Source of the DNA: Bacteroidales bacterium
Lineage (GTDB): Bacteria > Bacteroidota > Bacteroidia > Bacteroidales > F082
DNA: 64,000 nucleotides
Direction: 5' to 3'
NCBI GenBank assembly: GCA_017539045.1
Contig: JAFYHS010000018.1
Location: forward strand, 45,715-109,714
The notes beneath the pieces were generated by a model. That model searched no databases. It had not been told where the DNA came from and saw only the letters and a program-made list of their open reading frames with translations. Shown here piece by piece: positions 15,772 to 52,656 of this stretch. The position numbers and the translations under genes are program-made. Numbering within the stretch: position 1 is the stretch's first letter; each line of letters begins with the position of its first letter.

Positions 15772-15829
15772 GCCTTTGGGTGTATTCCATAGCTGAAGCA
15801 TTCGTGGCTATAGCCACAATTTGACATCA

Positions 15830-15871
15830 AAAAGAAAACCGATGCAGCTCTTGTTGCATCGGTTTTCTTTT
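15830..15871. terminator. Bidirectional terminator between the M49 gene and the tRNAs
   Basis: A perfect 17-bp stem (15830-15846 with 15855-15871) and an eight-base loop, with A- and T-runs at the ends. On the minus strand it begins two bases after the 3' end of tRNA-Ser(CGA), so it also ends the tRNA transcript. Confidence 0.85.
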
Positions 15872-15872
15872 G

Positions 15873-15958
15873 CGGAGAGAAAGGGATTCGAACCCTTGGA
15901 ACGCAAAGCGTTCAACGGTTTTCGAGACCGCCCCGATCGACCACTCCGGCATCTCTCC
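15873..15958 (-). tRNA. tRNA-Ser (CGA)
   Basis: An 86-base cloverleaf on the minus strand. The acceptor stem GGAGAGA pairs with TCTCTCC, with discriminator G as expected for serine. The anticodon loop is CTCGAAA (anticodon CGA), there is a long variable arm (CGTTGAACGCTTTGCGTTC), and the T-loop is GTTCGAATC. The CCA end is not encoded. Confidence 0.95.
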
Positions 15959-16012
15959 TTACTGCCCTTTGGCAGGGTCTTTCATCATAAAGGCGACAAA
16001 CTGTCGCCCTTG

Positions 16013-16097
16013 CGGAGACAGAGGGATTCGAACCCCCGAAGCCTTTCGGCTTAACGGTTTTCAAGACCGCCGCTATCGACCACTCAGCCATATCTCC
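16013..16097 (-). tRNA. tRNA-Ser (TGA)
   Basis: An 85-base cloverleaf on the minus strand with acceptor stem GGAGATA / TGTCTCC (one G-U pair), discriminator G, anticodon loop CTTGAAA (anticodon TGA), a long variable arm (TAAGCCGAAAGGCTT) and T-loop GTTCGAATC. CCA is not encoded. It is upstream of tRNA-Ser(CGA) in the same transcript, 54 bases apart. Confidence 0.95.
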
Positions 16098-16101
16098 GCT
16101 G

Positions 16102-16109
16102 CAAAAGTA
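16102..16109 (-). promoter_or_regulatory. Promoter -7 box of the tRNA-Ser pair
   Basis: TACTTTTG on the minus strand followed by CAG, four bases before the mature 5' end of tRNA-Ser(TGA). Transcription would start at or next to the mature end. Confidence 0.55.
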
Positions 16110-16171
16110 CAACAAATTTCGTTAGGTTGAGAATTTTCGACGAAAAAAAACTATTTTCCGCTGAAAAACCC

Positions 16172-16179
16172 TATCTTTG
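16172..16179 (+). promoter_or_regulatory. Promoter -7 box of TPR regulator copy 2
   Basis: TATCTTTG followed by CAAAATGG, 21 bases before the ATG at 16201. Confidence 0.5.
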
Positions 16180-16200
16180 CAAAATGGAAAAAACCGCGAA

Positions 16201-17841
16201 ATGAAGAATGCTTACCGCGTCATATCGGCTTTGTTTTTGTCCTTGTCGGCACTCCTCTGCGCGTGCAGCAGGGAGAGACAGGCTTTTACCGAGCAGAACG
16301 CACCTCGTCATTTCCATGAGCTGCAGGCCGTAGAGGCTTTGTTGGAGACGGATCCGACCAAGGCGATGGACAGCGTGAACCGGTTGGTGGCGCTCGCTGC
16401 GGAGGCTCCTTTCTCCACTTTGGATTCCATCGAATTGCAACTGCGTCTTGTACAAGCCCAATACAAGAACCGTTGCCTCTCCGAGCAGAGTCTTGAACTG
16501 TCGTCCATCGTGGCTTTTTACGACAGCTTGGCAACGATCTATCCCGAGGATGACGACTTGCAGTATCTGCGGGCCAATGCATATTATTATAGAGGTGCGC
16601 AGTGGACCTCTGCCAATGAAGATGTCAACGCCTTCACACATTATCTGAAGGCCTTGGAGGTGATGCACCAGCGCGAGGCATGGAAAAGCCCGTATGCCAA
16701 GCGGTTTGTCGCCTTGACATACACACGTCTGTCGGAAATCCTTTACCGTTATGGCCTACGTGATGCGGCTTTGGAGACTTGTCACAAAGCAGCATCCTAT
16801 TATGAGTCGGAGGCCGATCTTGCCGCCATGTTGCGCTTCGAAGCGGCCATCTATCAGTCGCAGAAAGACTACGACAAGGCTTTGTCGTTGTATGACGACG
16901 CGCAACAACTAGTGTCGGTGGGGGATGAGCCGATACAACTATCCATCGGTGCCAAGCTCTTCGAATTACAGCAATACGATTCGGCGGTACCACATCTGCT
17001 CAGGGCTTTCGCCAATGGCGACCGGTACGCCCGGATAGACGCAGCGGCCAAGTTGGCAGAGGTCTATTGCGATAAAGACATGGGCGACCAGGAACTGGCC
17101 TACACGCGCTATTATGTGGAGAACTCCATGATGGAGAGCCGAATGGCCTCGCGAAAGATGGAGATAGAATACCTTTACGATGACTACAATCAACCCAAGA
17201 CGGAGCCCGCGGTCCAGAAAAAGGATCATACCATGCCCGTTTTGCTGCTTTTGTTACTGCTATTGTCGGTCATTGCCATTATGGCGTTCATTATCATCCG
17301 CAACCGTAAGCGTATCAGCCACATCGAGAACAAGATCACGACCATAGAGCAGAAGCACGAACAAGAGAACGCGGATAAAGACCAGGAGATTGAACAGATT
17401 TCGCAAGCTTTGAATGACACCCGTGAACAGCTCAATGCCCAACGTGTCGATTTCGATGAGGCATGGCAGACCTTCTTGTCGTCGTCTATCGTGAACAAGA
17501 TCAAGCATTCCGTTGAAGACAAGGACATCATGATCAAGAGCGTGGGCGCATATCCCAAGCTGAAGCTGAAAGAGATGGATTATATCGACTTGGTGCAGGA
17601 AACCAACCATTGTTTCCCGGATTTCTCGTCGCGTTTCCTGAAACACTATCCCGACCTCAACATCGCCGACCTGCGTCACTGCTGTCTGGGGCTTTTGGGC
17701 ATGAACGACGCCGAAATTGCCGTGCTTGAAGGCATCTCCTATAGTGGGGCCAACCGTCGTACCAACAAAATCTTGTCGTCCTTGAATGCAGGCGAGAGCC
17801 TTGAAAACGCTATGATAGAGTGTTTGAAAAAGTTGATTTAA
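16201..17841 (+). CDS. Lipoprotein TPR / transmembrane / HTH-like regulator (copy 2)
   Basis: A 546-residue homologue of the proteins at 693 and 21622. Order: lipoprotein leader (SALLCAC), TPR-like helical repeats (about 25-330), a transmembrane helix (MPVLLLLLLLLSVIAIMAF), a highly charged coiled coil (EQKHEQENADKDQEIEQISQ), and a C-terminal block with YPDLNIADLRHCCLGLLGMNDAEIAVLEGISY that looks like a helix-turn-helix. The start at 16201 was preferred over a TTG at 16177 because the latter lies in the promoter box. Unlike the other two copies, it is not followed by a DUF3244-like gene but by a GWxTD operon. DNA binding is inferred. Confidence 0.65.
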   Translation: MKNAYRVISALFLSLSALLCACSRERQAFTEQNAPRHFHELQAVEALLETDPTKAMDSVNRLVALAAEAPFSTLDSIELQLRLVQAQYKNRCLSEQSLELSSIVAFYDSLATIYPEDDDLQYLRANAYYYRGAQWTSANEDVNAFTHYLKALEVMHQREAWKSPYAKRFVALTYTRLSEILYRYGLRDAALETCHKAASYYESEADLAAMLRFEAAIYQSQKDYDKALSLYDDAQQLVSVGDEPIQLSIGAKLFELQQYDSAVPHLLRAFANGDRYARIDAAAKLAEVYCDKDMGDQELAYTRYYVENSMMESRMASRKMEIEYLYDDYNQPKTEPAVQKKDHTMPVLLLLLLLLSVIAIMAFIIIRNRKRISHIENKITTIEQKHEQENADKDQEIEQISQALNDTREQLNAQRVDFDEAWQTFLSSSIVNKIKHSVEDKDIMIKSVGAYPKLKLKEMDYIDLVQETNHCFPDFSSRFLKHYPDLNIADLRHCCLGLLGMNDAEIAVLEGISYSGANRRTNKILSSLNAGESLENAMIECLKKLI

Positions 17842-17964
17842 AATATTGATATTGTGTTGAATATACGAAATTTGTTGATATTTGTTGAGAAAATGGAGAT
17901 GAAAAAGATTGACAACACTGTGTTTAGGCAACTACTTTTGCCATGGATTTAAAAACATTATGCC

Positions 17965-19440
17965 ATGAAAAAGTCATTTTTTATCCTCGCATTAGTGCTG
18001 ATTGCTTTCGCTGGCAACGCACAAGTCAAAGCAAAGAGACTGAAACCCTATCTCTCCACGACCACCTATTGTGTGCCAGGCGTGACATCCTACGTGGAGA
18101 ATGCCATCGCCTTCGATTGCCGTACGGCAACCTACAAGGAGTTTGAACCGGGTAAGTTCAAGGCCACGGTCGAAATCACCACGGTGTTCCGTAAAGGAGA
18201 AAAAGCCACATTCTCGAAGGTTGCCCTCGACAGCCCTGTGGTGACAGATACCACCAACCTCTCGGGCGCGTTCATCGACCAGCAGCGTTTCATGCTGGAC
18301 AATGGTGAATACGACATGGAGATCAGCATCACCGACATGAACAGCGGTTTCGCCTTGCCGACCGAGACCATCACGGTGAATGTCGACTATCCTGCCGACG
18401 CTCCCGCTGTGTCCGACATCCTTTTGTTCGACTCGTATTCCAAGAGCGTGAAGCCGTCGGCATGCACGAAGAGTGGCTTTGACTTCCTGCCTCGTGTATA
18501 TCCTTTCTATGGTGCCAACGAGGATAAGCTGAAGTTCTATGCCGAGCTGTACAACAGCGATAAGTTGTATGATGACGGGAAGTTCCTGGTCAATTATTAC
18601 ATCGAGACGGTGGAGTCGTCGACCCGCATGAAGAACTACTTCTTCTCGCAGCGTTACGAGGTGAAGAAGGTGGACATCCTGTTCAACACCATCAATATCA
18701 AGGACCTGCCGTCGGGCAACTACTACCTCGTCGTGGAGATGCGCGACCGCAGCAATAATCTGATCTGCTCCAACAGCTGCTTCTTCCAACGCAGCAACCC
18801 CGAGGCGAGCTTCGACATGGGCGACTTGGCAGGCGTCAACGTGGCCAACACCTTCGTCAGCGAGATTGACAATATCGACACCCTGCGCAAATACCTGCGT
18901 TATATTGACCCGATCTGCACCGAGATGGAGCGTGACTATACCTCCAGCTTGGTGAAGACCCAAGACAAGCAGACCATGCAGCAGTTCCTCTTCAACTTCT
19001 GGAGCGCCCGCTCGCCGATGAATCCCAAGCAGGCTTTCGATGACTATCTGGCTGCGGTGAGACGCGTTAACATGTCGTTTAAGACCACCAGCTTCCCGGG
19101 CTATCGCACTGACCGTGGCTATGTGTTCCTGAAATATGGCCAGCCCGACAAGATCATGCAGGAGCCCAATGAACCTGGCGCCTATCCTTACGAGATCTGG
19201 CATTACTATACCATTGGCAACCAACGCAACAAGAAGTTCGTCTTCATGTCGAAAGATGCGTCGGCCAACAACTACCAGCTCATCCACTCCGATGTGATCG
19301 GTGAGATCAACAACCCGCGCTGGCAACTTGAGATCTATTCGCGTATCTACGGACAAGGCTACGACCAAGGCGTCGACCAGACTGAATACGAGAAGGGCTG
19401 GGGCTCGCATGCTGGTGATTTGTACAACAACCCAAGATAA
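17965..19440 (+). CDS. GWxTD-domain exported protein
   Basis: A 491-residue protein with a signal peptide (IAFAGNAQ). The central part has beta-rich segments, and the C-terminal 140 residues carry the GWxTD domain, recognisable as GYRTDRGYVFLKYGQPDKIMQEP and YPYEIWHYY (here Tyr replaces the usual Trp in the name-giving motif). GWxTD domains are common in Bacteroidetes envelope proteins and have no assigned activity. It precedes an acyltransferase by only five bases, so a role in envelope or lipid assembly is a context inference. Confidence 0.8.
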   Translation: MKKSFFILALVLIAFAGNAQVKAKRLKPYLSTTTYCVPGVTSYVENAIAFDCRTATYKEFEPGKFKATVEITTVFRKGEKATFSKVALDSPVVTDTTNLSGAFIDQQRFMLDNGEYDMEISITDMNSGFALPTETITVNVDYPADAPAVSDILLFDSYSKSVKPSACTKSGFDFLPRVYPFYGANEDKLKFYAELYNSDKLYDDGKFLVNYYIETVESSTRMKNYFFSQRYEVKKVDILFNTINIKDLPSGNYYLVVEMRDRSNNLICSNSCFFQRSNPEASFDMGDLAGVNVANTFVSEIDNIDTLRKYLRYIDPICTEMERDYTSSLVKTQDKQTMQQFLFNFWSARSPMNPKQAFDDYLAAVRRVNMSFKTTSFPGYRTDRGYVFLKYGQPDKIMQEPNEPGAYPYEIWHYYTIGNQRNKKFVFMSKDASANNYQLIHSDVIGEINNPRWQLEIYSRIYGQGYDQGVDQTEYEKGWGSHAGDLYNNPR

Positions 19441-40343: not shown

Positions 40344-41864
40344 ATGGCAAATAAGAAAGAAACCGTCGAAGAGCCTTTGGAAAAACAGCTTTGGAAGGCT
40401 GCCGACAAATTACGTAAGAATATTGATGCGGCTGAATATAAGCACGTTGTGTTGGGCCTCATCTTTTTGAGATATATTTCGGTCTCGTTTGAACAGTTGT
40501 ATGACGAATTGGTGAAACAACAGGCCGATGGCGCTGATCCTGAAGACCGCGAGGAATATGCTGCCGAGAATGTGTTCTATGTTCCGGCAAATGCGCGTTG
40601 GTCGTATTTGGTTTCGATGGCAAAGAATCCGCAAATTGGGAAATACATCGACGATGCGATGGATGTCATCGAGCGCGAGAACAAGTCGTTGAAAGGCGTG
40701 CTGCCCAAGGTGTTTGCCCGTCCTAACTTGGACCCGACCAGTTTGGGTGAACTAATTGACTTGATTGGCAACTCCACTTTGCAAAACACCAGCACCAAAA
40801 GCGCCGACCTGCTCGGTCATGTCTTCGAGTATTTCCTTGGCGAGTTTGCTTTGGCCGAAGGCAAGAAGGGCGGACAATTCTATACGCCACGAAGTGTCGT
40901 GGAACTGCTTGTGAATATGCTGGAACCGTACAAAGGCCGTGTGCTCGACCCATGTTGTGGCTCTGGCGGCATGTTTGTGCAGAGCGAGAAGTTTGTAAAG
41001 GAGCATCAGGGACGGATTGAGAATATCTCAGTATACGGGCAGGAGAGCAACCAGACCACCTGGCGCCTGTGCAAGATGAACCTCGCCATCCGTGGCATCG
41101 ACGCCTCGCAGGTGAAGTGGAACACCGAAGGCTCGTTCCTCAACGATGCGCACCGCGATGTGAAAGCCGACTTCGTGATGGCCAATCCTCCGTTCAACGA
41201 CAGCGACTGGAGTGGCGACCAACTGCGTAGCGATGCCCGCTGGCAATATGGCGTGCCGCCTACGGGTAACGCCAATTTCGCTTGGATTCAGCATTTCATA
41301 TATCATCTTGCCCCAAGTGGACAAGCAGGCTTCGTGCTGGCCAAAGGATCATTGACCTCAAAAACAGGCGGCGAGGGCGAAATCCGCAAGGCATTGATTG
41401 ACAAAGGCTTGATCGCCTGCATCGTGAATCTTCCCGCTAAGCTGTTCCTGAACACTCAGATTCCCGCATGTCTGTGGTTTGTAACGCGTAACCGCACCCA
41501 TCGCGCTGGCGAAATCCTGTTCATCGATGCCCGCAACAAAGGCCATCTCATTAACCGCCGCACCCGCGAACTCTCGGAGGAAGACATTCACGAGATTGCT
41601 CGAACCTATCATTTATGGAGAGATGAATCCACCGATTACCAAGACATCGCAGGTTTCTGCGCTTCGGTACCAGTGAGCCGTGTGGCGGAACTGGACTATG
41701 TGCTCACGCCGGGTCGTTATGTGGGTTTGCCCGAAGAGGAGGACGACTTCAACTTTGCCGAGCGTTTCACCGCTCTGAAAGCCGAGTTTGAGGAGCAACT
41801 GAAGGAAGAGGAATGGCTGAACAAGGTGATTCTGGAAAATTTGGGGAAGATAAAAATTGAATAA
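40344..41864 (+). CDS. hsdM: Type I restriction-modification DNA methylase subunit
   Basis: A 506-residue adenine methyltransferase. The HsdM N-terminal helical domain (LWKAADKLRKNIDAAEYKHVVLGLIFLRYIS) precedes motif I (VLDPCCGSGGMF, from residue 200) and motif IV (NPPF, about 281). It methylates one adenine per strand in the asymmetric target chosen by HsdS and is part of the M2S and R2M2S complexes. GC-rich and similar in composition to the flanking chromosome. First gene of the defence operon; next start is three bases away. Confidence 0.96.
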   Translation: MANKKETVEEPLEKQLWKAADKLRKNIDAAEYKHVVLGLIFLRYISVSFEQLYDELVKQQADGADPEDREEYAAENVFYVPANARWSYLVSMAKNPQIGKYIDDAMDVIERENKSLKGVLPKVFARPNLDPTSLGELIDLIGNSTLQNTSTKSADLLGHVFEYFLGEFALAEGKKGGQFYTPRSVVELLVNMLEPYKGRVLDPCCGSGGMFVQSEKFVKEHQGRIENISVYGQESNQTTWRLCKMNLAIRGIDASQVKWNTEGSFLNDAHRDVKADFVMANPPFNDSDWSGDQLRSDARWQYGVPPTGNANFAWIQHFIYHLAPSGQAGFVLAKGSLTSKTGGEGEIRKALIDKGLIACIVNLPAKLFLNTQIPACLWFVTRNRTHRAGEILFIDARNKGHLINRRTRELSEEDIHEIARTYHLWRDESTDYQDIAGFCASVPVSRVAELDYVLTPGRYVGLPEEEDDFNFAERFTALKAEFEEQLKEEEWLNKVILENLGKIKIE

Positions 41865-41867
41865 GGT

Positions 41868-42968
41868 ATGAGCGAGATAATGAAAACCGATTTGGCCGAA
41901 CGCATAGAGCGGCTGATTGCAGAAGCAAGAAAACGCACCGTTGCCGCTGTCAACACGGCGATGGTTTATACCTATTATGAGATAGGAAGGATGATTGTGG
42001 AGGACGAGCAGCAGGGAGAGCAGAGGGCAGAATATGGAGCAACGATGCTAAAAAATGTAGCAAATAGACTTACCAAAAAATTTGGTAAAGGCTTCTCTCT
42101 GACGAATTTAAAACAGATGAGAAGTTTCTTTCTTATTTATTCTCAATCGATTATGGAGAAAGGTCAGACAGTGTCTGACCAATTCGAAAATTCCGAAACA
42201 CTGTCTCGGAAATCGTCATCACCGTTGACGAAATCACAAAAACAGCAGACACTGTCTGCGGAATTGCACTTCACCCTCAGTTGGTCGCATTACCTGAAAC
42301 TGATGCGCATTGAGAACCCCGACGAGCGGCGTTTTTATGAGATTGAGGCCGCCGAAAACAATTGGAGTCTGCGCGAGTTGCAGCGGCAGTTCGACAGTTC
42401 GCTATATGAGCGGTTGGCATTGAGCCGCGACAAAGCAGGGGTGAAGGCTTTGGCACAGAAGGGACAAATTGTCGAGAAGCCCGAGGATATGATTAAAGAC
42501 CCGTATGTGTTGGAATTCATCGGTTTGCCCGAATTGCCGCAATACAACGAGAGCGAGTTGGAACAACGCCTGATTGACCATTTGCAGACCTTCCTTTTGG
42601 AGTTGGGCAAAGGCTTCACCTTTGTGGGACGGCAAGTGCGTTTCACTTTCGACGAGCAGCATTTCCGTGTCGATTTGGTGTTCTACAACCGCTTGTTGCG
42701 TGCTTTTGTGCTGATAGACTTGAAGCGCGGCACACTGAAGCACCAAGATTTGGGTCAGATGCAGATGTATGTGAACTATTACGACCGCTTTGTGAAAACC
42801 GAGGACGAGAATCCTACCATAGGCATCCTGCTCTGCACCGACAAAAGTGATGCGATGGTGGAGATTACCTTGCCCGAAGACAACAACCAAATCTTTGCCA
42901 GTAAATACCAGACTTACCTGCCGAGCAAGGAGGAACTGCAAAGACTGATTGAGGAAAACCTAAAATAA
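41868..42968 (+). CDS. DUF1016 (YhcG-type) PD-(D/E)XK nuclease-like protein
   Basis: A 366-residue protein with the two parts of the YhcG family: an N-terminal helical region (AVNTAMVYTYYEIGRMIVEDEQQG; FTLSWSHYLKLMRI) and a C-terminal nuclease-like fold (FTFVGRQVRFTFDEQHFRVDLVFYNRLLRAFVLIDLKRG, with D and D-x-K). YhcG-like proteins often sit inside type I operons; their role is uncertain, possibly a subunit exchange or extra nuclease. The linker between the parts (about 95-135) is encoded by iterated palindromic words at 42162-42259. Confidence 0.82.
   Translation: MSEIMKTDLAERIERLIAEARKRTVAAVNTAMVYTYYEIGRMIVEDEQQGEQRAEYGATMLKNVANRLTKKFGKGFSLTNLKQMRSFFLIYSQSIMEKGQTVSDQFENSETLSRKSSSPLTKSQKQQTLSAELHFTLSWSHYLKLMRIENPDERRFYEIEAAENNWSLRELQRQFDSSLYERLALSRDKAGVKALAQKGQIVEKPEDMIKDPYVLEFIGLPELPQYNESELEQRLIDHLQTFLLELGKGFTFVGRQVRFTFDEQHFRVDLVFYNRLLRAFVLIDLKRGTLKHQDLGQMQMYVNYYDRFVKTEDENPTIGILLCTDKSDAMVEITLPEDNNQIFASKYQTYLPSKEELQRLIEENLK
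42162..42259. repeat. Iterated palindromes inside the DUF1016 gene
   Basis: GGTCAGACA-G-TGTCTGACC (9-1-9, 42162-42180) and GCAGACA-C-TGTCTGC (7-1-7, 42245-42259) are perfect dyads, with a third related word (ACACTGTCT) between them. They encode TVSD, TLSR and TLSA in the linker. Confidence 0.6.
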
Positions 42969-42975
42969 TGGGATT

Positions 42976-44130
42976 ATGAGCGAGTGGAAAGAATATAAGT
43001 TGGGAGAGATAATTCAATTAATTGGTGGAGGAACACCCAAGACATCCGTTCCTGAATATTGGGATGGCGATATCCCATGGTTGTCTGTTAGTGATTTTAA
43101 CAATGGGAAAAAGTATGTGTTTACCGCAGAAAAATACATAACACAATTGGGATTGAATAACTCAAGTACAAAACTATTACATAAGGATGATATTATTATT
43201 TCAGCGCGAGGAACGGTTGGCGTTGTGGCAATGATTGGTAGCGATATGGCTTTTAATCAATCGTGTTATGGGATAAGAAACAAAGATTTAGTGGATAAAC
43301 AATATCTTTATTACCTACTTGTTAATTCTGTGAATGGATTAAAACAAAATGCTTATGGGGGTGTTTTTGATACAATAACAAGAGAAACCTTTGATTTAAT
43401 TGACGTTTCATTACCTTCTCTCAACGAGCAATGCCGCATAGCCGCCATTCTCTCTTCCCTTGACGACAAGATAGACCTTCTGCACCGCGAGAACGCCACC
43501 TTGGAGCAGATGGCGGAGACGCTGTTTAGGCAGTGGTTTGTGTTGGAGGCCAAGGAGGAGTGGGAGGAAGGAAAGTTGGGGGATTGGGTAGTTATTAAAA
43601 GAGGAGGTTCTCCAAGACCTATTAATGATTACATATCGTCAAGCGGTTATAGATGGCTAAAAATATCTGATGTAACTAACCTAAATTCACCATATATCTT
43701 TCAAACCAAAGAGTATATTAAAGAAAGTGGATTGCAAAAGACTGTTTATTTGAATAAAGGATCTTTGGTTTTATCAAATAGTGCAACACCTGGTATACCC
43801 AAAATACTATGTGTAGACAGTTGCATACACGATGGTTGGTTGTATTTCCCCAAATCCAGTTTCTCAAAGATTTACTTGTATTTATTGTTTAAATATATAC
43901 GTGAAGATTTGGTGAATTTAGGCAATGGAAGTATTTTTACGAATCTGAAAACAGATATACTAAAAGATTATAAAGTGGTCAAACCTGATTCTAAAACCTT
44001 AGAAAACTTTGACCATCAGGTACAACCCATTTTTGATAAACTATACAGTAATGATATTCAAATTCAAACTCTCATTCAGACGCGCGACGGGTTGCTGCCG
44101 AGGCTGATGAGTGGGGAGGTGAAGATATAG
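42976..44130 (+). CDS. hsdS: Type I restriction-modification specificity subunit
   Basis: A 384-residue HsdS with two target-recognition domains. TRD1 spans about 1-145 (EYKLGEIIQLIGGGTPKT), the central conserved helix about 150-190 (LNEQCRIAAILSSLDDKIDLLHREN), TRD2 about 195-350 (GDWVVIKRGGSPRPINDY) and a short C-terminal helix (IQTRDGLLPRLMSGEVKI). It fixes the DNA target of the complex; the target itself cannot be read. The two TRDs are AT-rich while the conserved helices are GC-rich like hsdM, which points to domain exchange. Confidence 0.93.
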   Translation: MSEWKEYKLGEIIQLIGGGTPKTSVPEYWDGDIPWLSVSDFNNGKKYVFTAEKYITQLGLNNSSTKLLHKDDIIISARGTVGVVAMIGSDMAFNQSCYGIRNKDLVDKQYLYYLLVNSVNGLKQNAYGGVFDTITRETFDLIDVSLPSLNEQCRIAAILSSLDDKIDLLHRENATLEQMAETLFRQWFVLEAKEEWEEGKLGDWVVIKRGGSPRPINDYISSSGYRWLKISDVTNLNSPYIFQTKEYIKESGLQKTVYLNKGSLVLSNSATPGIPKILCVDSCIHDGWLYFPKSSFSKIYLYLLFKYIREDLVNLGNGSIFTNLKTDILKDYKVVKPDSKTLENFDHQVQPIFDKLYSNDIQIQTLIQTRDGLLPRLMSGEVKI

Positions 44131-44159
44131 ATAATTGTATACATTACATCATAAATGCT

Positions 44160-47018
44160 ATGCTGACAGAAATTGAAAAACTCCTTGAAACGAAGACTAC
44201 GGGAAAAAAGAGCCATGTTTTTTTCACTCAATGGCAAATGGCTAGGGATTATGTGCCGCAGGTGCTAAACACAATCTCACAAGTTTTTCCTCATTATAGC
44301 TTGCATGACCGTACACATTCTGAAACTATCATCTATATTATAGGAAGAATTGTAGGACTCAAAACACTTGAGAAAATGTCATCCATTGATTTGTGGATGA
44401 TACTTTGCGCGGCTTTTTATCATGATGTTGGAATGGCAGTTTATTCTAATGAAAAAATAGATTTTTTCCAAGATGAGAAGTTTGTTGAATTCTTGAAAAC
44501 CATTCAATCGACAGACTCATCTCCTCTTCATGAATATTCGAAATGTTTCGAAATTAAAGACAACAAAGTATATTATAAAAACGACATTCTTAGTGCCCAG
44601 AACTATGATGCTGCCAGATTTTTAATAGCGGAATTTGTGAGGAAAAAACATGGAGAACGGGCTAATGATTCTATGCATTCAGACATGTCTATCAATCTGC
44701 CGGGTAGTCCAATTCCAAAACGTATCATTGATGTGTTGGGCAATATTTGTAATGCTCATACGCAATCTTTTGATAAAGTAATGGAGTTGCCGTTTTGTGA
44801 AGCAGGCATTGATCATGAGGATTGCCATCCCAGATACATTGCTTGTTTGTTGAGATTGGGGGATTTGTTGGATATAGATAACAATCGTTTTTCGGAAGTC
44901 TTGTTACAGACCTTGCCTTCTATTCCAATAGACTCAATATGGCACAAAGAGAAGCACATGGCCGTAAAACATTTGCAAATCAATGAAACAAGAATTGAAG
45001 CTGTTGCAGAATGCAATGATTATGATGTTGCGGATGTTACAAATAGATGGTTCTCCATGATTGATACGGAAATGTATAATCAGATGAAGAATTGGAATAA
45101 TATTGTGCCAGACGTGTCGTATGGATTCCTTCCAACATTAGGTAAGATGGAGGTTGTTCTAAAAGGCTATGATACTATAAATGGCAAGGATCGTCCGAGT
45201 TTTAAAATTGATTCGTCGAAAGCGATTGAACTCTTACAGGGTGCCGGGCTTTATAATGAGCCATACCAATGTATTCGTGAATTGTTACAGAATTCGGTTG
45301 ATGCTACATTATTGAGAGTTTTTGTTGAATCTGAACAAAAAGGGATTCTTTTGTTAACTAAGGATGATTTTTATAAAGAGTGTAAAGACCATCCCATTAA
45401 AGTATACATCTCTAGTAATAAAATTGAAAAAGATAAAATAAAGTGGTCTATTAAAATCTCAGATAGTGGCATTGGGATGTCAAAAAACGATTTGTTGTTT
45501 TTGACGACAACTGGTAGTTCAAATAGAAATACAGAAAAAAAGAAGATTATCGAAAAAATGCCAGAATGGATGAGACCGTCAGGGACATTTGGAATAGGAT
45601 TTCAGAGCGTTTTTCTAATAACGGATGCTGTTAAGATTAAGACCAGAAAGCTTAATAAAGAAGATGTTTTAAATGTTTCACTTAATAATCCTGCAGGGAA
45701 AAAAGAAGGTGCCGTATTAATACAAACATCAATAGAAGAACACAAACCTTTTGGGACAGAACTCGAATTTGATATTGTAAGAAAAACTATGCCAGATAGA
45801 TGGTCAGTTCCAATGGATTATGCTGTCGCAAGTCATGTCATATCCTCATACGATTTTGTTAACGATGATTCATTGGATGTGGATATTGCAAAGGTTGTTG
45901 ATGAAGTTAGTAAGTTTGCTTATGCTAGTTATATTCCAATTCATGTTAAGCTTGATGATGACGATGAAATAATATTAAATAGTGATAGGAATAATAGATT
46001 TGATTATTTTGTTGCAGATAAAGGTTTAGAATTGTCTATTTCAACATCTGAGAATGATAGTAGGATTTATTATAGAAATCAAATTATTCCAAATGTTAGA
46101 TTCTCCATTAATTATTTGTCATTTCAAGTCAATATATTAAGTGGTGATGCTAAAAAGATATTGACTTTGAACAGGAATGAAATTCAAGCGGATTATAAGG
46201 CAACACTTCGAAATAATATAATGGAAGCGGCGTTTGAAATAATAAGTAAACATTATGACGAATTGGAAGAGAATTTAAAAAAATACGCCTCTATGTTCGT
46301 CAATTACTATTTAAGTGAGGATAGAAGGATGACATTGTTTGCTAATCGTCCTTTAGATGAATGGAAGCAACTGGTGATAGGTAAAGAGAATCAAATGACA
46401 ATGGAAGAAATAGTGGGTTATAATACCATTCTTATAAATGAAACTATGCATTTGCCATTTGAGAGGCAATTTATTCAAAGGGAGGGCGTTCTCGAGATTA
46501 TTGGAAATGTGTTTTCTGATGGATTGCTTGATTATAATACAAGTAAGACTAATAATCATAGGTTAAGATATTATACGGAGAAGACCGAAAAAGGGAAAAA
46601 TATTTATATTGAGTTGTCAAAAGGTGATACAGAGGTGAAGATCGACGATTGGGAAGTCTGGTTTAAATCATATATGTTCCAAAGTCATTATTCAAGAAAT
46701 CTTATGCCTTGTGTGGACAAGTATTTGAAACTACGTGTTAAAGAGGATAAAATTCCCATGGGATGTGGTGATTATACATTTATTAGAGTCAAGCAAAAGT
46801 ATCCACAAATGATTTGCCCATATACTAGAATATCTAATCCTGCTAATAGACAGGGAGTTTCTCACAAGTTAAGAGAAAGTGTAACGGAAGATTTGTTTAA
46901 AATGGCGTATGATAATAGATATGATGAGACTGTTACAATGGAACAAATAAAAAATACGTATCAGCAGTTTCTTGATGACACGAAACAATATGTGGAGAGC
47001 TTTTTGGAGAATACTTAG
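44160..47018 (+). CDS. HD-domain / GHKL-ATPase fusion protein of the defence island
   Basis: A 952-residue protein. Residues about 40-260 look like an HD phosphohydrolase: HDRTH (His49, Asp50, His53), FYHDVG (His88, Asp89) and LRLGDLLDIDNNR. Residues about 350-600 are a GHKL (Hsp90/MutL/MORC-type) ATPase: N-box IRELLQNSVDA (Glu374, Asn378), D-x-G-x-G (Asp435, Gly437, Gly439) and the lid region TGSSNRN...GTFGIGFQS (475-483). The remaining 350 residues are unassigned. The gene is strongly AT-rich compared with hsdM and hsdR, and starts 29 bases after hsdS. GHKL ATPases in restriction-modification operons have been described before as relatives of MORC. A role in defence, with the HD part as effector and the ATPase as sensor or switch, is an inference. 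Confidence 0.75.
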   Translation: MLTEIEKLLETKTTGKKSHVFFTQWQMARDYVPQVLNTISQVFPHYSLHDRTHSETIIYIIGRIVGLKTLEKMSSIDLWMILCAAFYHDVGMAVYSNEKIDFFQDEKFVEFLKTIQSTDSSPLHEYSKCFEIKDNKVYYKNDILSAQNYDAARFLIAEFVRKKHGERANDSMHSDMSINLPGSPIPKRIIDVLGNICNAHTQSFDKVMELPFCEAGIDHEDCHPRYIACLLRLGDLLDIDNNRFSEVLLQTLPSIPIDSIWHKEKHMAVKHLQINETRIEAVAECNDYDVADVTNRWFSMIDTEMYNQMKNWNNIVPDVSYGFLPTLGKMEVVLKGYDTINGKDRPSFKIDSSKAIELLQGAGLYNEPYQCIRELLQNSVDATLLRVFVESEQKGILLLTKDDFYKECKDHPIKVYISSNKIEKDKIKWSIKISDSGIGMSKNDLLFLTTTGSSNRNTEKKKIIEKMPEWMRPSGTFGIGFQSVFLITDAVKIKTRKLNKEDVLNVSLNNPAGKKEGAVLIQTSIEEHKPFGTELEFDIVRKTMPDRWSVPMDYAVASHVISSYDFVNDDSLDVDIAKVVDEVSKFAYASYIPIHVKLDDDDEIILNSDRNNRFDYFVADKGLELSISTSENDSRIYYRNQIIPNVRFSINYLSFQVNILSGDAKKILTLNRNEIQADYKATLRNNIMEAAFEIISKHYDELEENLKKYASMFVNYYLSEDRRMTLFANRPLDEWKQLVIGKENQMTMEEIVGYNTILINETMHLPFERQFIQREGVLEIIGNVFSDGLLDYNTSKTNNHRLRYYTEKTEKGKNIYIELSKGDTEVKIDDWEVWFKSYMFQSHYSRNLMPCVDKYLKLRVKEDKIPMGCGDYTFIRVKQKYPQMICPYTRISNPANRQGVSHKLRESVTEDLFKMAYDNRYDETVTMEQIKNTYQQFLDDTKQYVESFLENT

Positions 47019-47053
47019 AATGATATGACATAACACGAAAGGATACCTAACAA

Positions 47054-48073
47054 ATGGCACGAAAAAAAGAGAAATATAACGGCTACAAGCCCCCGTTCAT
47101 GCTTTCTGCAAAGGCGGTGGGGATGATTGCGGACATCTCCGCGCAGATGGAGCGCTTCGCCATACGGTTGGAGCAGAGCGATGCCCTTACCCTGCGCAGA
47201 GCCAACCGCATCAAGACCATCCATAGCTCATTAGCCATCGAGGGTAACACCCTGCTGGAGAGCGAGGTGGCGGACATCATCGACGGCAAGACCGTCGTTG
47301 CGCCTATCCGTGAAATCCAGGAGGTGAAGAACGCCATTCGTGTATATGAGGAGTTCGACAGACTTGATCCCTTCTCCATGGACGACCTGCTTAAAGCCCA
47401 CGGACTGATGATGTCCGCTCTGACCGATGACGCAGGACATTTCCGCAGGGGTGGAGTGGGCGTGTACTCCGAAAACGGCTTGGTGCACATGGCACCACCT
47501 GCTGAAAGGGTGTATCCTCTGATATCCGATTTGTTCAACTGGCTGAAAAACGCCGATGACCACCTGCTGGTGCGCAGCTGCGTTTTTCATTATGAGTTCG
47601 AGCTAATACATCCGTTTATAGATGGCAACGGCCGCATGGGACGCCTGTGGCAGTCGCTTATCCTCACCCGATGGCATCCTGCCTTTGCCCACCTGCCGGT
47701 GGAGAATATGGTCTATTCCAACCAGCAGGCCTATTACGATGCCATAGCACTAAGTACTAAACAAGGTGAAAGCGGTCCTTTTATTGAGTTTATGCTTGGC
47801 GAAATACTGAATGCTGTACGCAGTCATCAAGGTGAGCCTCTGGCTGCACCTGTAAATGCACCTGTAAATGCACCTGTAAAACATACTAAAACACAAGCTG
47901 CAATTATTGATATTTTGAAGGGAGATGCTCATGCTACATACGATGAAATGGCAGCAACCATTGGCGTGAATAGAACAACTATTATGAGAAATATTGCAGC
48001 GTTAAAAGGAAAAGGTGTTTTGGAACGTGTTGGAGAAGACAAAAACGGTTATTGGAAACTGAATAATAAATAG
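47054..48073 (+). CDS. Fic family protein with winged-helix tail
   Basis: A 339-residue Fic protein. The active-site motif HPFIDGNGRMGR starts at His186, and an inhibitory-helix motif of the (S/T)xxxE(G/N) type, SLAIEG, lies near residue 60, so this is a self-inhibited class with the motif N-terminal to the Fic core. Fic domains usually transfer AMP to a target protein. A short linker of APVN repeats (about 265-275) leads to a C-terminal winged helix (AATIGVNRTTIMRNIAALKGKGVLERVG). The core is GC-rich while the tail is AT-rich, so the tail may have been joined from elsewhere. Its target is unknown. Confidence 0.88.
   Translation: MARKKEKYNGYKPPFMLSAKAVGMIADISAQMERFAIRLEQSDALTLRRANRIKTIHSSLAIEGNTLLESEVADIIDGKTVVAPIREIQEVKNAIRVYEEFDRLDPFSMDDLLKAHGLMMSALTDDAGHFRRGGVGVYSENGLVHMAPPAERVYPLISDLFNWLKNADDHLLVRSCVFHYEFELIHPFIDGNGRMGRLWQSLILTRWHPAFAHLPVENMVYSNQQAYYDAIALSTKQGESGPFIEFMLGEILNAVRSHQGEPLAAPVNAPVNAPVKHTKTQAAIIDILKGDAHATYDEMAATIGVNRTTIMRNIAALKGKGVLERVGEDKNGYWKLNNK
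47846..47880 (+). repeat. 12-bp tandem repeat in the Fic gene linker
   Basis: GCACCTGTAAAT is repeated almost three times and encodes APVNAPVNAPVK. The 12-base unit keeps the frame. Confidence 0.8.
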
Positions 48074-48077
48074 CGAA

Positions 48078-48164
48078 ATGACCCAACTCCACGAATCCGA
48101 TATAGAGCTGATGCTGGTTTATAATTGTGTATACCAAACAATGGATTTTATTCCAAAAAAGTGA
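48078..48164 (+). pseudogene. Relic of the hsdR 5' end
   Basis: This 28-codon frame begins MTQLHESDIELML, which matches the HsdR start MAILHESDIEQML at 49444; 14 bases (CTCCACGAATCCGA) are identical. After 13 codons the similarity ends. It starts four bases after the Fic stop, where an intact hsdR would be expected. It is best explained as the old hsdR start, cut off when the AAA ATPase gene was inserted. Confidence 0.7.
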
Positions 48165-48236: not shown

Positions 48237-49439
48237 ATGAAACTTATTCAACGAGAACAGTATTTGGCGAAGCTCAGGGCGCTGCGCGATAAGGCAATCA
48301 TAAAGGTGATTACCGGAGTGCGGCGTTGTGGCAAAAGTACGCTGATGCAGCTTTTCCAAAAGGAACTGTTGCAATCAGGCGTAAGCGAAAAGCAAATCAT
48401 CAGTATCAATTTCGAGGATTATGATTTCGTGGGACTTCGGAATGCCAAAGCCTTGTATCAGCATGTTGTCGCCCGTCTCGTTGAAGGCGTGACCAATTAC
48501 GTTTTCCTTGATGAGATCCAGCATGTGGACAACTATGCCGATGTGGTGGACGCGCTCTTTGTGAAAGAGAATGTCGATTTGTATATCACGGGATCAAATG
48601 CCTACCTGCTCTCAAGTGAGATCGCCACGCTGCTCTCTGGCAGGTATGTGGAACTACAGCTTCTGCCGCTTTCTTTCAAGGAATATGTCAATGCAACGGG
48701 CAACACCAATGACTTGGAAAGAAAATACGCTGACTATATCACATTCTCGTCCTTCCCTTACGCTATGGCGTTTGATAAAGAGGTGCAGATGACGAACGAT
48801 TACCTGAGAGGCATTTACAGTACCATCGTGCTTAAGGATGTGATGCACCGCCATAGCATCGGCGACGCGATGATGCTTGAAAATGTGATGGCATTCATGG
48901 CCGACAATATTGGAAATACCTTGTCCGTCAAGAAAATTGCCGACACTTTGACTTCATCGGGGAGGAAGGTGGATGTGAAAACCATCGAGAAATACCTGTC
49001 GGCACTCTGCCAGAGCTTCATCCTTTATCCTGCTAAAAGATTCAACATAAAAGGCCGACAGTTGCTAAAGACAATGGAGAAGTACTATTTGGTGGATGTG
49101 GCCCTGCGCAACACGCTGTTGGGAAGCACGAACGCGGATTTCGGACGCATTTTGGAGAATGTGGTGTATCTGGAATTATTGCGACGTTACCCTAACGTGT
49201 ATATCGGAAAGACGGATGCGTTTGAGATCGATTTCGTGGCCGTAAACATGCAGGAGGTGGCCTATTATCAGGTGGCGGCGACGGTTCGTGACGAGGCGAC
49301 GCTTGAACGGGAACTGCATCCACTCAAGATGGTGAAGGATAATTACCCGAAAACCATTCTGAGTTTGGATGTGGCTCCAGTGGCCTATCATAATGGCATC
49401 AAGATACAAAATGTGTTAGACTGGTTATTAGAACAATAA
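48237..49439 (+). CDS. AAA ATPase with DUF4143 C-terminus
   Basis: A 400-residue protein. Walker A (GVRRCGKSTLMQ, about 22-33) and Walker B (YVFLDEIQHV) define an AAA_14 domain; the C-terminal half (KTMEKYYLVDVALRNTLLG, NVVYLELLRRYPNVYIGKTDAFEIDFVAV) is DUF4143, a nuclease-like fold. Such genes are abundant and mobile-looking in Bacteroidetes; their role is unknown. It has its own promoter and is flanked by two copies of the hsdR start, so it was probably added after the operon had formed. Confidence 0.85.
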   Translation: MKLIQREQYLAKLRALRDKAIIKVITGVRRCGKSTLMQLFQKELLQSGVSEKQIISINFEDYDFVGLRNAKALYQHVVARLVEGVTNYVFLDEIQHVDNYADVVDALFVKENVDLYITGSNAYLLSSEIATLLSGRYVELQLLPLSFKEYVNATGNTNDLERKYADYITFSSFPYAMAFDKEVQMTNDYLRGIYSTIVLKDVMHRHSIGDAMMLENVMAFMADNIGNTLSVKKIADTLTSSGRKVDVKTIEKYLSALCQSFILYPAKRFNIKGRQLLKTMEKYYLVDVALRNTLLGSTNADFGRILENVVYLELLRRYPNVYIGKTDAFEIDFVAVNMQEVAYYQVAATVRDEATLERELHPLKMVKDNYPKTILSLDVAPVAYHNGIKIQNVLDWLLEQ

Positions 49440-49443: not shown

Positions 49444-52400
49444 ATGGCAATCCTCCACGAATCCGACATAGAACAGATGCTCATCGAGCAACTGAAAGCC
49501 AAAGGCTACCAATATCTCTATGGCCCCGACATCGCGCCCGATGGCGATACTCCCATGCGTGCCAGTTTTGATGAAGTGGTGCTCCGCGACAAGTTGGAAA
49601 AGGCGGTGAAACGGCTCAATCCGTCGTTGCCTTATTCCGTGCAGGACGAGGCGGTGAAAACCGTACTGCGTATCAGCTCGCCCGATGTGTTGGCCAACAA
49701 TGAGGAATTTCACCGCTTGCTCACGGAAGGCGTTCCGGTATCGGTGTTCAAAGATGGTGTGGAACGTGGCGAAAGGGTGTGGCTCGTTGACTTCAACGAC
49801 CCGTGGAACAACGAGTTTACAGTGGTCAATCAGTTCACCATCATCGAGAACGGCCACAACCGCCGCCCCGATGTGCTGCTCTTTGTGAACGGTCTGCCCT
49901 TGGTCATCTTTGAACTGAAAAATGCCGTCGACGAGAATGCCACCCTGCAAAGTGCCTATCGGCAGATTGAGACTTACAAGCAACAGATTCCGTCGCTGTT
50001 CACCTACAATGCCTTGGTGGTTATTTCCGATGGCTTGGAGGCACGGGCTGGCTCGCTTTCGGCAGGCTTCAGCCGATTCACGGCATGGAAGAGCGAGGAT
50101 GGCGAGAATGTGGCTTCGAATCTCGTGAGCGAGTTGGAAGTGCTGGTCAATGGCATGTTGCGGAAGGACACTTTGCTGGATTTGGTGCAGTCGTTCACGG
50201 TGTTTGAGAAACAGAAACAAGAAGACTTGAGAACAGGTCTCACTACCATCAAGACGGTGAAAAAGATTGCCGCCTATCACCAATACTATGCCGTCAACAA
50301 GGCGGTGGAATCGACTTTACGAGCCACGGGCATCAATGCTAATAGTATGTTCGCGGAATCGCCTGCCAATTATGGCTTCAAGACGGTGAAAGAGCAACAG
50401 CCTGGCGACCATCGTGCTGGTGTGGTGTGGCACACGCAAGGTAGCGGCAAGTCGCTCACCATGGTGTTTTACACGGGCAAAATCGTGCAGCGGCTCAACA
50501 ACCCGACCATTGTCGTCATCACCGACCGCAATGACTTGGATGACCAACTTTTTGATACCTTCACAGGCGCAAAGCAACTCTTGAGGCAGACACCTGTCCA
50601 AGCCGAAAGTCGTGAGCACTTGAAGAAGCTTTTGTCGGTGCAGTCAGGCGGTGTTATCTTCACCACTATTCAGAAGTTCCAACCCGAGTCGGGCAATGTT
50701 TACGACACGCTTACCGACCGCAGCAACGTCATCGTGATGGCCGACGAGGCGCATCGGACCCAATACGGCTTCAAGGCTAAGACGGTGGACGTACGCAACG
50801 AGGCTGATGAAGTGATTGGCTCGGAAATCAAATACGGTTTTGCCAAGTATTTACGTGATGCGCTGCCTAATGCCACCTATCTTGGTTTCACAGGAACACC
50901 CATCGAGAAAGAGGACAAGAACACGCCGGCAGTGTTCGGCAATTACATTGATGTTTACGACATCGCCCAGGCGGTGGAGGATGGCGCCACGGTGCGCATC
51001 TATTACGAGAGCCGTTTGGCCAAGGTGGAACTCAGCGATGAAGGACGCCAATTGGTGGAAGACCTCGACAAGGAGTTGGAAACCGAGGACATGAACGATG
51101 TCCAAAAAGCCAAGGCGAAATGGACGCAGTTGGAAGCGCTGATTGGCAGTCCCAAGCGTTTGAAAAACATAGCCAAAGACATTGTCACGCATTTTGAGGA
51201 ACGACAGAAAGTGTTCGAAGGTAAGGCCATGATTGTGGCGATGAGTCGCCGCATTGCTGCCGAGTTGTACGATGAAATCATCAAACTGCGTCCCGAGTGG
51301 CATTCCGACGACCTGGCCAAAGGTGCCGTGAAGGTGGTGATGACTTCTTCAGCATCCGATGGCGCGAAAATCGCCAAACATCACACTACCAAGGAGCAGC
51401 GTCGTGCCTTGGCAGAGAGGATGAAAGACCCCGACGATGAGCTGAAGCTCGTCATCGTTCGCGATATGTGGCTCACAGGCTTTGACGTGCCTTGTCTGCA
51501 TACGCTTTACATCGACAAGCCGATGCAAGGCCACAACTTGATGCAGGCCATCGCTCGCGTGAACCGTGTCTATAAGGACAAGCCGGGCGGTCTGGTGGTC
51601 GATTATTTGGGCATCGCTGCCGATTTGAAAAAGGCCTTGTCGTTCTATTCCGATTCGGGTGGCAAGGGCGACCCCACACAGCAGCAAGATCAAGCAGTGG
51701 CCTTGATGCAGGAGAAACTGGAAGTGGTGGAGCAGATGTTCTATGGCTTTGATTATAAGCAATATTTCACTGCCGATACTGCTGGAAAACTCTCCTGGAT
51801 TCTGAAAGCCGAAGACTTCATTTTGGGTTTGGACGACGGCAAGAAGCGTTTCGTGAACGAGGTAACCGCCTTGGGTAAAGCCTTCGCCTTGGCCATCCCG
51901 CAGGATGCCGCCATGGATGTGAAGGACGAAGTGGCGTTCTTCCAAGCCGTGAAAGCGCGTCTCTGCAAGTTCGACCAAACTGGTTTAGGCAAGACGGATG
52001 AGGAAATCGAAACCACCATTAGGCAAGTCATTGACCAGGCCTTGGTGTCCGAAAAAGTGATTGATCTTTTTGATGCGGCAGGTATCAAGAAACCTGACAT
52101 CTCCATTCTTTCAGAAGAGTTCCTGATGGAATTGAAAGACATGGAGCACAAAAATATCGCCTTGGAGGTGCTGCGCAAGCTGTTGGAAGGTGAGATCAAG
52201 GCGCGTTCCAAGTTCAATGTCGTGGAAGGCCGCACTTTGATGGAGATGCTGGATGGTTCCATCACCCGTTATCACAACAAAATCATCACCGCCGCCGAAG
52301 TCATCGATGAACTGATTAAACTCAGCAAGACCATAGTGGAGAAAGACAAAGAGGCTGATGACATGGGCTTGACCACCTACGAATATGCGTTCTATTCTGC

Positions 52401-52656
52401 CGTTGCCGACAACGAAAGCGCGAAAGAGTTGATGGGGAAGGACAAGCTTCGTGAGTTGGCGGTGGTGCTAACCGAAACCATCCGCAAAAATTCATCTATT
52501 GACTGGACCATCAAGGAGAATGTTCGGGCAAAGATGAAAGTGGCAGTGAAACGGCTATTGCGCAAATATGGTTATCCACCTGATATGCAGCAATTGGCTA
52601 CGGAGACAGTTTTGAAACAGGCTGAATTGATTGCAGAAGAAATTGCAAATCAATAA
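49444..52656 (+). CDS. hsdR: Type I restriction-modification endonuclease/translocase subunit
   Basis: A 1070-residue HsdR. The N-terminal nuclease has RPDVLLFVNGLPLVIFELK (about 139-159), the translocase has Walker A (TQGSGKSLTM, about 330) and DEAH (about 432), and motif VI lies in QAIARVNRVYKDK. The C-terminus is the helical domain that docks on HsdM. It pumps DNA and cuts at a distance from unmethylated targets. It starts four bases after the AAA gene; all key motifs are intact, so the system should be active. Confidence 0.96.
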   Translation: MAILHESDIEQMLIEQLKAKGYQYLYGPDIAPDGDTPMRASFDEVVLRDKLEKAVKRLNPSLPYSVQDEAVKTVLRISSPDVLANNEEFHRLLTEGVPVSVFKDGVERGERVWLVDFNDPWNNEFTVVNQFTIIENGHNRRPDVLLFVNGLPLVIFELKNAVDENATLQSAYRQIETYKQQIPSLFTYNALVVISDGLEARAGSLSAGFSRFTAWKSEDGENVASNLVSELEVLVNGMLRKDTLLDLVQSFTVFEKQKQEDLRTGLTTIKTVKKIAAYHQYYAVNKAVESTLRATGINANSMFAESPANYGFKTVKEQQPGDHRAGVVWHTQGSGKSLTMVFYTGKIVQRLNNPTIVVITDRNDLDDQLFDTFTGAKQLLRQTPVQAESREHLKKLLSVQSGGVIFTTIQKFQPESGNVYDTLTDRSNVIVMADEAHRTQYGFKAKTVDVRNEADEVIGSEIKYGFAKYLRDALPNATYLGFTGTPIEKEDKNTPAVFGNYIDVYDIAQAVEDGATVRIYYESRLAKVELSDEGRQLVEDLDKELETEDMNDVQKAKAKWTQLEALIGSPKRLKNIAKDIVTHFEERQKVFEGKAMIVAMSRRIAAELYDEIIKLRPEWHSDDLAKGAVKVVMTSSASDGAKIAKHHTTKEQRRALAERMKDPDDELKLVIVRDMWLTGFDVPCLHTLYIDKPMQGHNLMQAIARVNRVYKDKPGGLVVDYLGIAADLKKALSFYSDSGGKGDPTQQQDQAVALMQEKLEVVEQMFYGFDYKQYFTADTAGKLSWILKAEDFILGLDDGKKRFVNEVTALGKAFALAIPQDAAMDVKDEVAFFQAVKARLCKFDQTGLGKTDEEIETTIRQVIDQALVSEKVIDLFDAAGIKKPDISILSEEFLMELKDMEHKNIALEVLRKLLEGEIKARSKFNVVEGRTLMEMLDGSITRYHNKIITAAEVIDELIKLSKTIVEKDKEADDMGLTTYEYAFYSAVADNESAKELMGKDKLRELAVVLTETIRKNSSIDWTIKENVRAKMKVAVKRLLRKYGYPPDMQQLATETVLKQAELIAEEIANQ

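What the first reader, a model, noticed from the sequence alone, without database searches (positions are those of the whole stretch)
44160..47018. HD phosphohydrolase fused to a GHKL ATPase inside a type I restriction-modification operon
Seen: an N-terminal HD-type motif set (His49, Asp50, His88, Asp89), a complete GHKL ATP site (Glu374/Asn378, Asp435-x-Gly-x-Gly, GTFGIGFQS) and about 350 further residues with no recognised domain, placed between hsdS and a Fic gene. The gene is clearly AT-rich against hsdM and hsdR. Known: MutL/MORC-type GHKL ATPases have been noted in restriction-modification contexts, and HD domains serve as effectors in several conflict systems. Inference: a switch in which an Hsp90-like ATPase controls an HD effector, possibly as a back-up when restriction fails.
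Basis: partly seen in the sequence, partly recalled or inferred. Interest (0 to 1): 0.85.

Follow-up and report, generated by a model that had tools for sequence, protein, structure and literature searches.

The report
ATP-gated HD enzyme in restriction operon
A bacterial gene fusing a probable nucleotide-destroying (HD) domain to an Hsp90-like ATP switch sits just behind the specificity gene of a restriction-modification operon, a spot where related operons carry other anti-virus genes, so it is probably an exchangeable anti-phage module.

Summary
Window 44160-47018 (+) encodes an intact 952-aa protein: HD-CE domain (Pfam PF24391, residues 43-304, E=4e-49) plus an Hsp90-type GHKL ATPase (371-525), between hsdS and fic of a type I R-M operon. 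R-M linkage is real but facultative: at least 5 of 40 homologous loci have an N6-methylase within 3 kb, 0.29 expected. Strongest evidence: 13 same-genus orthologous operons (hsdR 77-98%) lack the gene; in 9 of 12 the place behind hsdS holds a known defence family instead: Hachiman-like, CBASS, Avs4, nSTAND, SIR2-HerA, AbiU, Abi_C, HEPN or Schlafen. Most likely: a self-contained, ATP-gated HD effector carried as exchangeable defence cargo. A link to failed restriction ("back-up") is not shown, and the varied partners argue against an obligatory one. HD-CE/Hsp90 proteins (recalled) and defence genes embedded in type I operons are known kinds. No structure could be predicted; no activity is shown.

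The parts
44160..47018 (+). HD-CE / Hsp90-like GHKL fusion gene, 952 aa
   Evidence: ORF; Pfam; conservation
44286..45071 (+). HD-CE domain (aa 43-304); invariant H49, H53, H88-D89, R161, H164, H200, D235
   Evidence: PF24391 E=4.1e-49; 98 of 98 proteins
45195..45779 (+). Hsp90-like GHKL ATPase domain (about aa 346-540); E374, N378, D435xGxG439, F477-G-x-G480
   Evidence: PF13589 E=2.3e-8; NCBIfam HSP90 E=3.2e-17; hhalign against HtpG-like proteins 98%
45780..47015 (+). C-terminal region (about aa 541-952), conserved in the orthologue clade, no recognised family; R672 in LTLNRNEIQ is Arg in 93 of 98
   Evidence: HSP90 middle-domain homology not confirmed
40344..41864 (+). hsdM, type I methylase
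   Evidence: PF02384 E=1.6e-111
41868..42968 (+). YhcG/DUF1016 PDDEXK nuclease gene (accessory, between hsdM and hsdS)
   Evidence: PF06250, PF17761
42976..44130 (+). hsdS, low G+C; immediately upstream of the fusion gene (29-nt gap)
   Evidence: PF01420 E=5e-47; G+C
43433..43585 (+). conserved central hsdS block, 75-96% identical in the sister operons that match it (anchor)
   Evidence: blastn
44050..44134 (+). conserved 3' end of hsdS, matched in 9 of 13 sister operons: left edge of the exchange slot
   Evidence: blastn
47054..48073 (+). fic gene with winged HTH; homology resumes at about 47018-47062 in five sister operons (in the others at 48078 or in hsdR): right edge of the slot
   Evidence: PF02661
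48087..48115 (+). 29-nt near-copy of the hsdR 5' end (49453-49481, 90%): probable insertion scar of the AAA_14 gene
48237..49439 (+). AAA_14/DUF4143 ATPase gene
   Evidence: PADLOC PDC-S01
49444..52656 (+). hsdR
   Evidence: PF04313, PF11867; TIGR00348

Best explanation
A self-contained anti-phage module carried as exchangeable cargo in a type I R-M operon. The N-terminal HD domain is a metal-dependent phosphohydrolase whose likely substrate is a nucleotide; the Hsp90-like ATPase is a nucleotide-gated clamp that holds the HD site off until an infection cue closes it, after which the pool is degraded and phage growth stops. The gene lies in the hsdS-to-hsdR slot, is co-transcribed with the operon, and adds a second layer that does not depend on methylation. 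Shown: domains, conserved sites, position, replacement by known defence genes in sister operons. Inferred: substrate, gating, trigger, anti-phage effect, co-transcription.
For: Domains; both sites invariant in 98 of 98 proteins (11 of 108 loci dropped first: own copy, 2 duplicates or near-duplicates, 7 broken, truncated, frameshifted or partial rows, and L051, whose match was split). Slot test: 13 same-genus orthologous hsd operons were read (hsdR 77-98%); none has the gene, nor a close homologue elsewhere in those genomes. Of the 12 with hsdS and hsdR on one contig, 9 have a known defence or conflict family behind hsdS: Hachiman-like helicase with a 230-aa partner L179, CBASS cyclase+SLATT L181, Schlafen AlbA L182, Abi_C L184, SIR2+HerA L185, HEPN_Swt1 L186, Avs4 L187, nSTAND L188 (just over its cut-off), AIPR/AbiU L190. 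Position: directly 3' of hsdS, same strand, also in L065 (about 7 nt), L081 and L105 (ATGA overlap), L103 (18 nt). Mobility: low G+C, 6 plasmid records, two of them weak partial matches, 4 viral contigs.
Against: No activity, structure or phage test. In 28 of 40 homologous loci no R-M gene was found within 3 kb; several stand among housekeeping genes (purL, valS, adh). No PADLOC family matches (best E=0.022). Position among defence genes is guilt by association; one sister slot holds a transposase (L189), one an unknown 803-aa gene (L180), one ORFs not searched (L191). Hsp90-type proteins can be plain chaperones.
Confidence: 0.68

Rival explanations
1. A PrrC-like guard: the protein is held silent by the HsdM/HsdS complex it is encoded with and is released when a phage anti-restriction factor disables the enzyme; the HD domain then acts as a suicide effector.
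For: Embedded in a type I locus like the guard PrrC (PMC2610378, PMC12707154; passages read); directly 3' of hsdS in 5 of the 7 type I-linked loci seen (window, L065, L081, L103, L105), two with overlapping stop and start codons; not so in L108 and L122.
Against: Also found beside type IIG-like, type III-like, EcoRI-like and D12 methylases and with no R-M gene found, which a guard of HsdM/HsdS would not tolerate; sister slots hold CBASS, Avs4 and Hachiman-like genes, which have triggers of their own (established knowledge).
Confidence: 0.17
2. A regulator or chaperone of the R-M complex (the ATPase remodels HsdR/HsdM; the HD domain removes a signalling nucleotide), not a defence effector.
For: Hsp90-like ATPase; HD phosphodiesterases often process signals (established knowledge); gene order with hsd genes.
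Against: Absent from 13 of 13 orthologous sister operons (L183 and L190 are cut by contig ends); no R-M gene found near most homologues.
Confidence: 0.08
3. A nuclease-type HD effector acting on phage DNA or RNA instead of free nucleotides.
For: Some HD domains cut nucleic acid (Cas3, Cas10; recalled).
Against: Profile match is to small-molecule phosphodiesterases (weak) and the Pfam family is named for nucleotide-targeting effectors (recalled).
Confidence: 0.15

Closest known systems
HD-CE effectors coupled to HSP90-like modules (Nicastro et al. 2023, NAR 51:11479; paper not held; abstract recalled; reference entry seen)
   Same: HD-CE domain (Pfam PF24391 well over its cut-off) on the same chain as an HSP90-like ATPase
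   Different: Whether they reported this subfamily or its place inside type I operons could not be checked
PrrC in the EcoprrI type IC locus (PMC2610378, PMC12707154: passages read)
   Same: Accessory toxin-like gene embedded in a type I R-M locus
   Different: PrrC is an anticodon nuclease with an ABC-type ATPase domain, bound to its R-M enzyme; no such domain matched here
DarTG2 between hsdS and hsdR in E. coli E2348/69 (PMC12255303: passages read)
   Same: Defence module in the same slot
   Different: Toxin-antitoxin pair, different proteins
TgvAB in the Vibrio cholerae type I operon, and Campylobacter RloF (PMC11411939: passages read)
   Same: Embedded anti-phage genes; TgvAB protects without the R-M genes, though 10-100 times less against several phages than the whole cluster
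   Different: GmrSD-type modification-dependent nucleases
Clover CloA and other HD dNTPase defences (PMC12265719: passages read)
   Same: HD metal site used to deplete nucleotides during infection
   Different: CloA is regulated by dTTP and p3diT from a partner enzyme, not by a fused Hsp90-like ATPase
HtpG/HSP90 chaperones
   Same: GHKL N-domain with the E, N, DxGxG and FGxG motifs
   Different: Far below the HtpG/HSP90 equivalog cut-offs (47 of 371 and 62 of 455 bits); C-terminal half not matched by profile

Membership tests
HD-CE (Pfam PF24391) | profile score over gathering cut-off | tested here: met
   168.1 bits against 27, residues 43-304
HD-CE (Pfam PF24391) | HD metal-site residues kept | tested here: met
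   H49, H53, H88, D89, H164, H200, D235 in 98 of 98; which of them bind metal, and the geometry, not checked
HD-CE (Pfam PF24391) | hydrolyses nucleotides | not testable with these tools
   needs enzyme assay
GHKL / HSP90-like ATPase | Bergerat motifs E-N, DxGxG, GxxG | tested here: met
   PF13589 34.6 bits against 25; PF02518 18.4 against 26.4, under its cut-off
HtpG chaperone | NCBIfam equivalog score | tested here: not met
   47.2 against 371 bits; HSP90 family protein 62.2 against 455
HtpG chaperone | HSP90 middle domain | tested here: inconclusive
   hhalign of residues 541-952 gives 0.1%; R672 motif only suggestive
MutL/MORC-type ATPase | MutL profile | tested here: not met
   14.4 against 180 bits; MORC not tested
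PrrC-like guard of type I R-M | embedded in a type I operon | tested here: met
   operon order and families
PrrC-like guard of type I R-M | invariable linkage to type I R-M | tested here: not met
   most of the loci examined have no type I gene found nearby
PrrC-like guard of type I R-M | release by anti-restriction factor | not testable with these tools
   needs phage or Ocr/Stp experiment
known defence system in PADLOC-DB 2.0.0 | profile match | tested here: not met
   best E=0.022

The most novel reading that the evidence does not exclude
The 3' side of hsdS in this lineage's type I operon is a dedicated exchange slot: conserved blocks in the middle and at the end of hsdS, and the start of fic or hsdR, serve as recombination handles, so that a new specificity half and a new defence module can be swapped in together while hsdM and hsdR stay. 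The HD/Hsp90 protein is one of these modules, and one that senses a cue common to all R-M activity (DNA ends or nucleotide imbalance), which would explain its repeated linkage to R-M enzymes of unrelated types.
Probability: 0.33. Interest if true: 0.75.

Novelty: new member of a known kind. Interest (0 to 1): 0.52.

Why it matters
It gives a predicted but, as far as recalled, untested effector class (HD-CE driven by an Hsp90-like ATPase) a clear defence context and exact residues to mutate. It also shows that one type I operon lineage carries differing defence genes behind hsdS in most of the 12 sister operons read, so such operons are a ready source of candidates: an 803-aa gene without Pfam or PADLOC match (L180) sits in the same place.

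Tried and rejected
Search with the single protein in genome contigs confirmed no relative; an 8-row alignment gave 145 relatives, 80 kept. PDB search with the C-terminal region gave nothing useful, and hhalign did not confirm an HSP90 middle domain. MutL origin rejected on score. A first count of R-M neighbours used seeds taken from those neighbours, so it gives no fair background; searches give the fair test for N6_Mtase. The tree (FastTree, long branches, 88 rows, R-M labels assigned by me from incomplete neighbour annotation) shows R-M linkage scattered: 15 changes for 18 rows, 78 of 500 shuffles as low. Paper searches on HD-CE with HSP90, on embedded genes or on a slot behind hsdS found single cases (TgvAB, DarTG2, PrrC, Rlo) but no survey; the library lacks most subscription papers.

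Full report
Observation. The ORF at 44160-47018 (+) is intact, 952 aa, the only match in its own assembly (81% complete). Pfam finds HD-CE (PF24391) at residues 43-304, E=4.1e-49, and HATPase_c_3 at 371-525, E=2.3e-8. NCBIfam's best matches are HSP90 profiles, far under their equivalog cut-offs. The operon is hsdM, YhcG-type nuclease, hsdS, this gene, fic, AAA_14/DUF4143, hsdR, all on +. Low G+C starts at hsdS (0.374) and covers this gene (0.339); the other five genes are 0.47-0.52.

Active sites. In 20 diverse proteins (A1), 46 (A3) and finally 98 (the window protein and 97 homologues) the residues H49, H53, H88, D89, R161, H164, H200, D235 and R373, E374, Q377, N378, D381, D435, G439, F477, G478, G480 never change; G437 is Ala in two viral-contig rows (L147, L148). 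For the last count 11 of 108 loci were left out: the own copy L064, duplicates or near-duplicates L074 and L146, L065 (apparent frameshift near its start), L092, L111, L116, L141, L055 and L063 (broken, truncated or partial) and L051 (match in two stretches). A profile of the HD region matches class I phosphodiesterases over HxxxH...HD at E=0.0019, a lead only. R672, in LTLNRNEIQ, is Arg in 93 of 98 and resembles the HSP90 middle-domain arginine motif (recalled; the HtpG-like proteins of the same family read PLNVSRSYLQ), but hhalign does not support homology there.

Distribution. In the window's family of genomes 6 long homologues of 31-32% identity over about residues 7-503 (L002-L007) and four weaker ones (L008-L011) were found; the other hits (78 of 173 genomes match in all) cover only the ATPase region and look like HtpG. 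In the order sample only the own genome of 393 has one at E<=1e-15; in the phylum sample 10 of 395, the own included. A search of named genomes with an alignment found 145 relatives, of which 80 were returned, by their titles mainly Bacteroidota, Pseudomonadota and Bacillota. Also: 4 viral contigs, 6 plasmid records, two of them weak partial matches, 1 unannotated phage record over 56% of the query.

Neighbourhoods. Pfam was run on chosen neighbours, not all (30 proteins, further ones). Of the 40 loci used for the genome-wide test (40 of the 80, mostly the best scoring with flanks), at least 12 have an R-M gene within 3 kb: L065, L081, L105 (type I), L108 (hsdR), L078, L085, L087 (Eco57I or type IIG-like), L067 (split methylase plus helicase), L070 (EcoRI-type methylase), L072 (D12 methylase), L088 (N6_N4 methylase), L104 (ResIII). 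Outside the 40: L103, L122, L137 and, in the window's genus, L044 and L045. Others have RloB and an AAA_21 ATPase (L073), HEPN-nucleotidyltransferase (L086) or an AAA_21 ATPase (L089) next door. Against the link: no R-M gene was found within 3 kb of the other 28, and Psychrobacter, Acinetobacter and other loci stand beside adh, purL, valS or an integrase.

Fair test. PF02384 N6_Mtase genes of the 40 genomes were located: 96 matches in 143.7 Mb at E<=1e-8. At least five loci (L065, L078, L081, L085, L105) have one within 3 kb of the HD gene, expected 0.29, Poisson P about 1.4e-5 (contig positions matched by hand). Methylase_S domains lie at four of the same loci (L065, L081, L085, L105). On a tree of 88 proteins the R-M label needs at least 15 changes and is no more clustered than shuffled labels (78 of 500 as low): linkage seems to have arisen or been lost many times, with the caveat that absence rests on incomplete annotation.

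The slot. The window's hsdR has relatives in 29 of 99 same-genus genomes at E<=1e-100, distant ones and the own included. Thirteen operons with hsdR at 77-98% were read (L179-L191). hsdM is 93-97% identical in the eight where it is complete (92% over 402 aa in L182, 82% over a contig-end part in L189, not on the stretch in L181, L183, L190), while hsdS is 33-44% (28% over an 85-aa part in L190; none on L183). None of the 13 holds the HD gene; blastn shows homology up to the end of hsdM (about 41858-41882; in L181 to the end of yhcG), then only short hsdS blocks (42972-43010, about 43433-43585, about 44050-44134), and again from about fic (47018-47062) or from 48078 or hsdR (49453). In 12 of the 13 hsdS and hsdR are on one contig (L190 with part of hsdS). 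Behind hsdS stand: a 230-aa ORF and a Hachiman-like helicase (L179), an 803-aa protein without Pfam or PADLOC match (L180), SMODS cyclase plus SLATT_4 (L181), Schlafen AlbA (L182), Abi_C (L184), SIR2_2 plus HerA (L185), HEPN_Swt1 (L186), Avs4 (L187), an nSTAND protein of similar size (L188; not run in PADLOC), an IS200-type transposase (L189), AIPR/AbiU (L190), and ORFs not searched (L191). L183, without hsdS on its contig, has Avs4 in two ORFs. Slot G+C is 0.27-0.43. So 9 of 12 sister slots hold a known defence or conflict family.

Position. Seven type I-linked loci were seen. In five the HD gene follows hsdS directly on the same strand: at 29 nt (window), about 7 nt (L065), 18 nt (L103) or with overlapping ATGA (L081, L105). 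In L108 a YgjP-like gene and hsdR lie upstream, and in L122 the type I genes start 2 kb downstream. Translation coupling is an inference.

Reading. Conserved sites in both domains, low G+C, presence on plasmids and viral contigs, and replacement in the same slot by known anti-phage genes make a defence effector the best reading. The Hsp90-like ATPase as a gate and nucleotides as substrate are inferred from family knowledge (Nicastro et al. 2023, recalled, not held) and from HD dNTPases in defence (PMC12265719, passages). Dependence on the R-M enzyme, as for PrrC (PMC2610378, PMC12707154; passages), is not favoured because partners vary and for many copies none was found. TgvAB in the V. cholerae type I operon protects on its own, although the whole cluster protects 10-100 times better against several phages (PMC11411939, passages), so some cooperation is possible; DarTG2 lies between hsdS and hsdR in E. 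coli (PMC12255303, passages). The guard model stays open at about 0.17.

Verdict. Observation confirmed with corrections; interpretation partly supported; a new member of a known kind, with a slot arrangement that deserves a wider survey.

Noticed in passing
window 48087-48115 and 49453-49481: A 29-nt near-copy (90%) of the hsdR 5' end lies between fic and the AAA_14 gene. Of the window and 12 sister operons scanned, such a copy occurs in the window, L179, L181 and L182, each with an extra AAA_14 or AAA_21+RloB gene just before hsdR: a probable insertion scar.
   Followed up: partly
L180:7448-9859 (+): 803-aa low-G+C protein directly after hsdS in a sister operon, no match in Pfam or PADLOC: candidate unknown defence gene.
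   Followed up: no
L136:6491-9835 (+): 1114-aa protein with reverse transcriptase (RVT_1) and HD-CE domains, directly upstream of an HD/GHKL gene.
   Followed up: no
L181:9268-10077 (-): TIR-domain gene between the YhcG gene and hsdS in a sister operon; the hsdM-hsdS gap is a second variable place (Schlafen-HATPase_c_4 or RhuM in others).
   Followed up: partly
L095:9941-12844 and 15541-18948: Two different HD/GHKL homologues within 3 kb in Moritella dasanensis.
   Followed up: no
L147:7061-12745 (viral contig): HD/GHKL homologue next to a phage GPA replication gene, as cargo of a P2-like phage might be (P2 likeness inferred).
   Followed up: no
L092, L111: HD/GHKL homologues broken into several ORFs in Chryseobacterium sp. 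CH21 and Psychrobacter frigidicola.
   Followed up: no
L079 (Methanocaldococcaceae MAG, 4.2-kb contig): Near neighbour in the tree of a Campylobacteraceae copy; short contig of a MAG, so perhaps misbinned.
   Followed up: no
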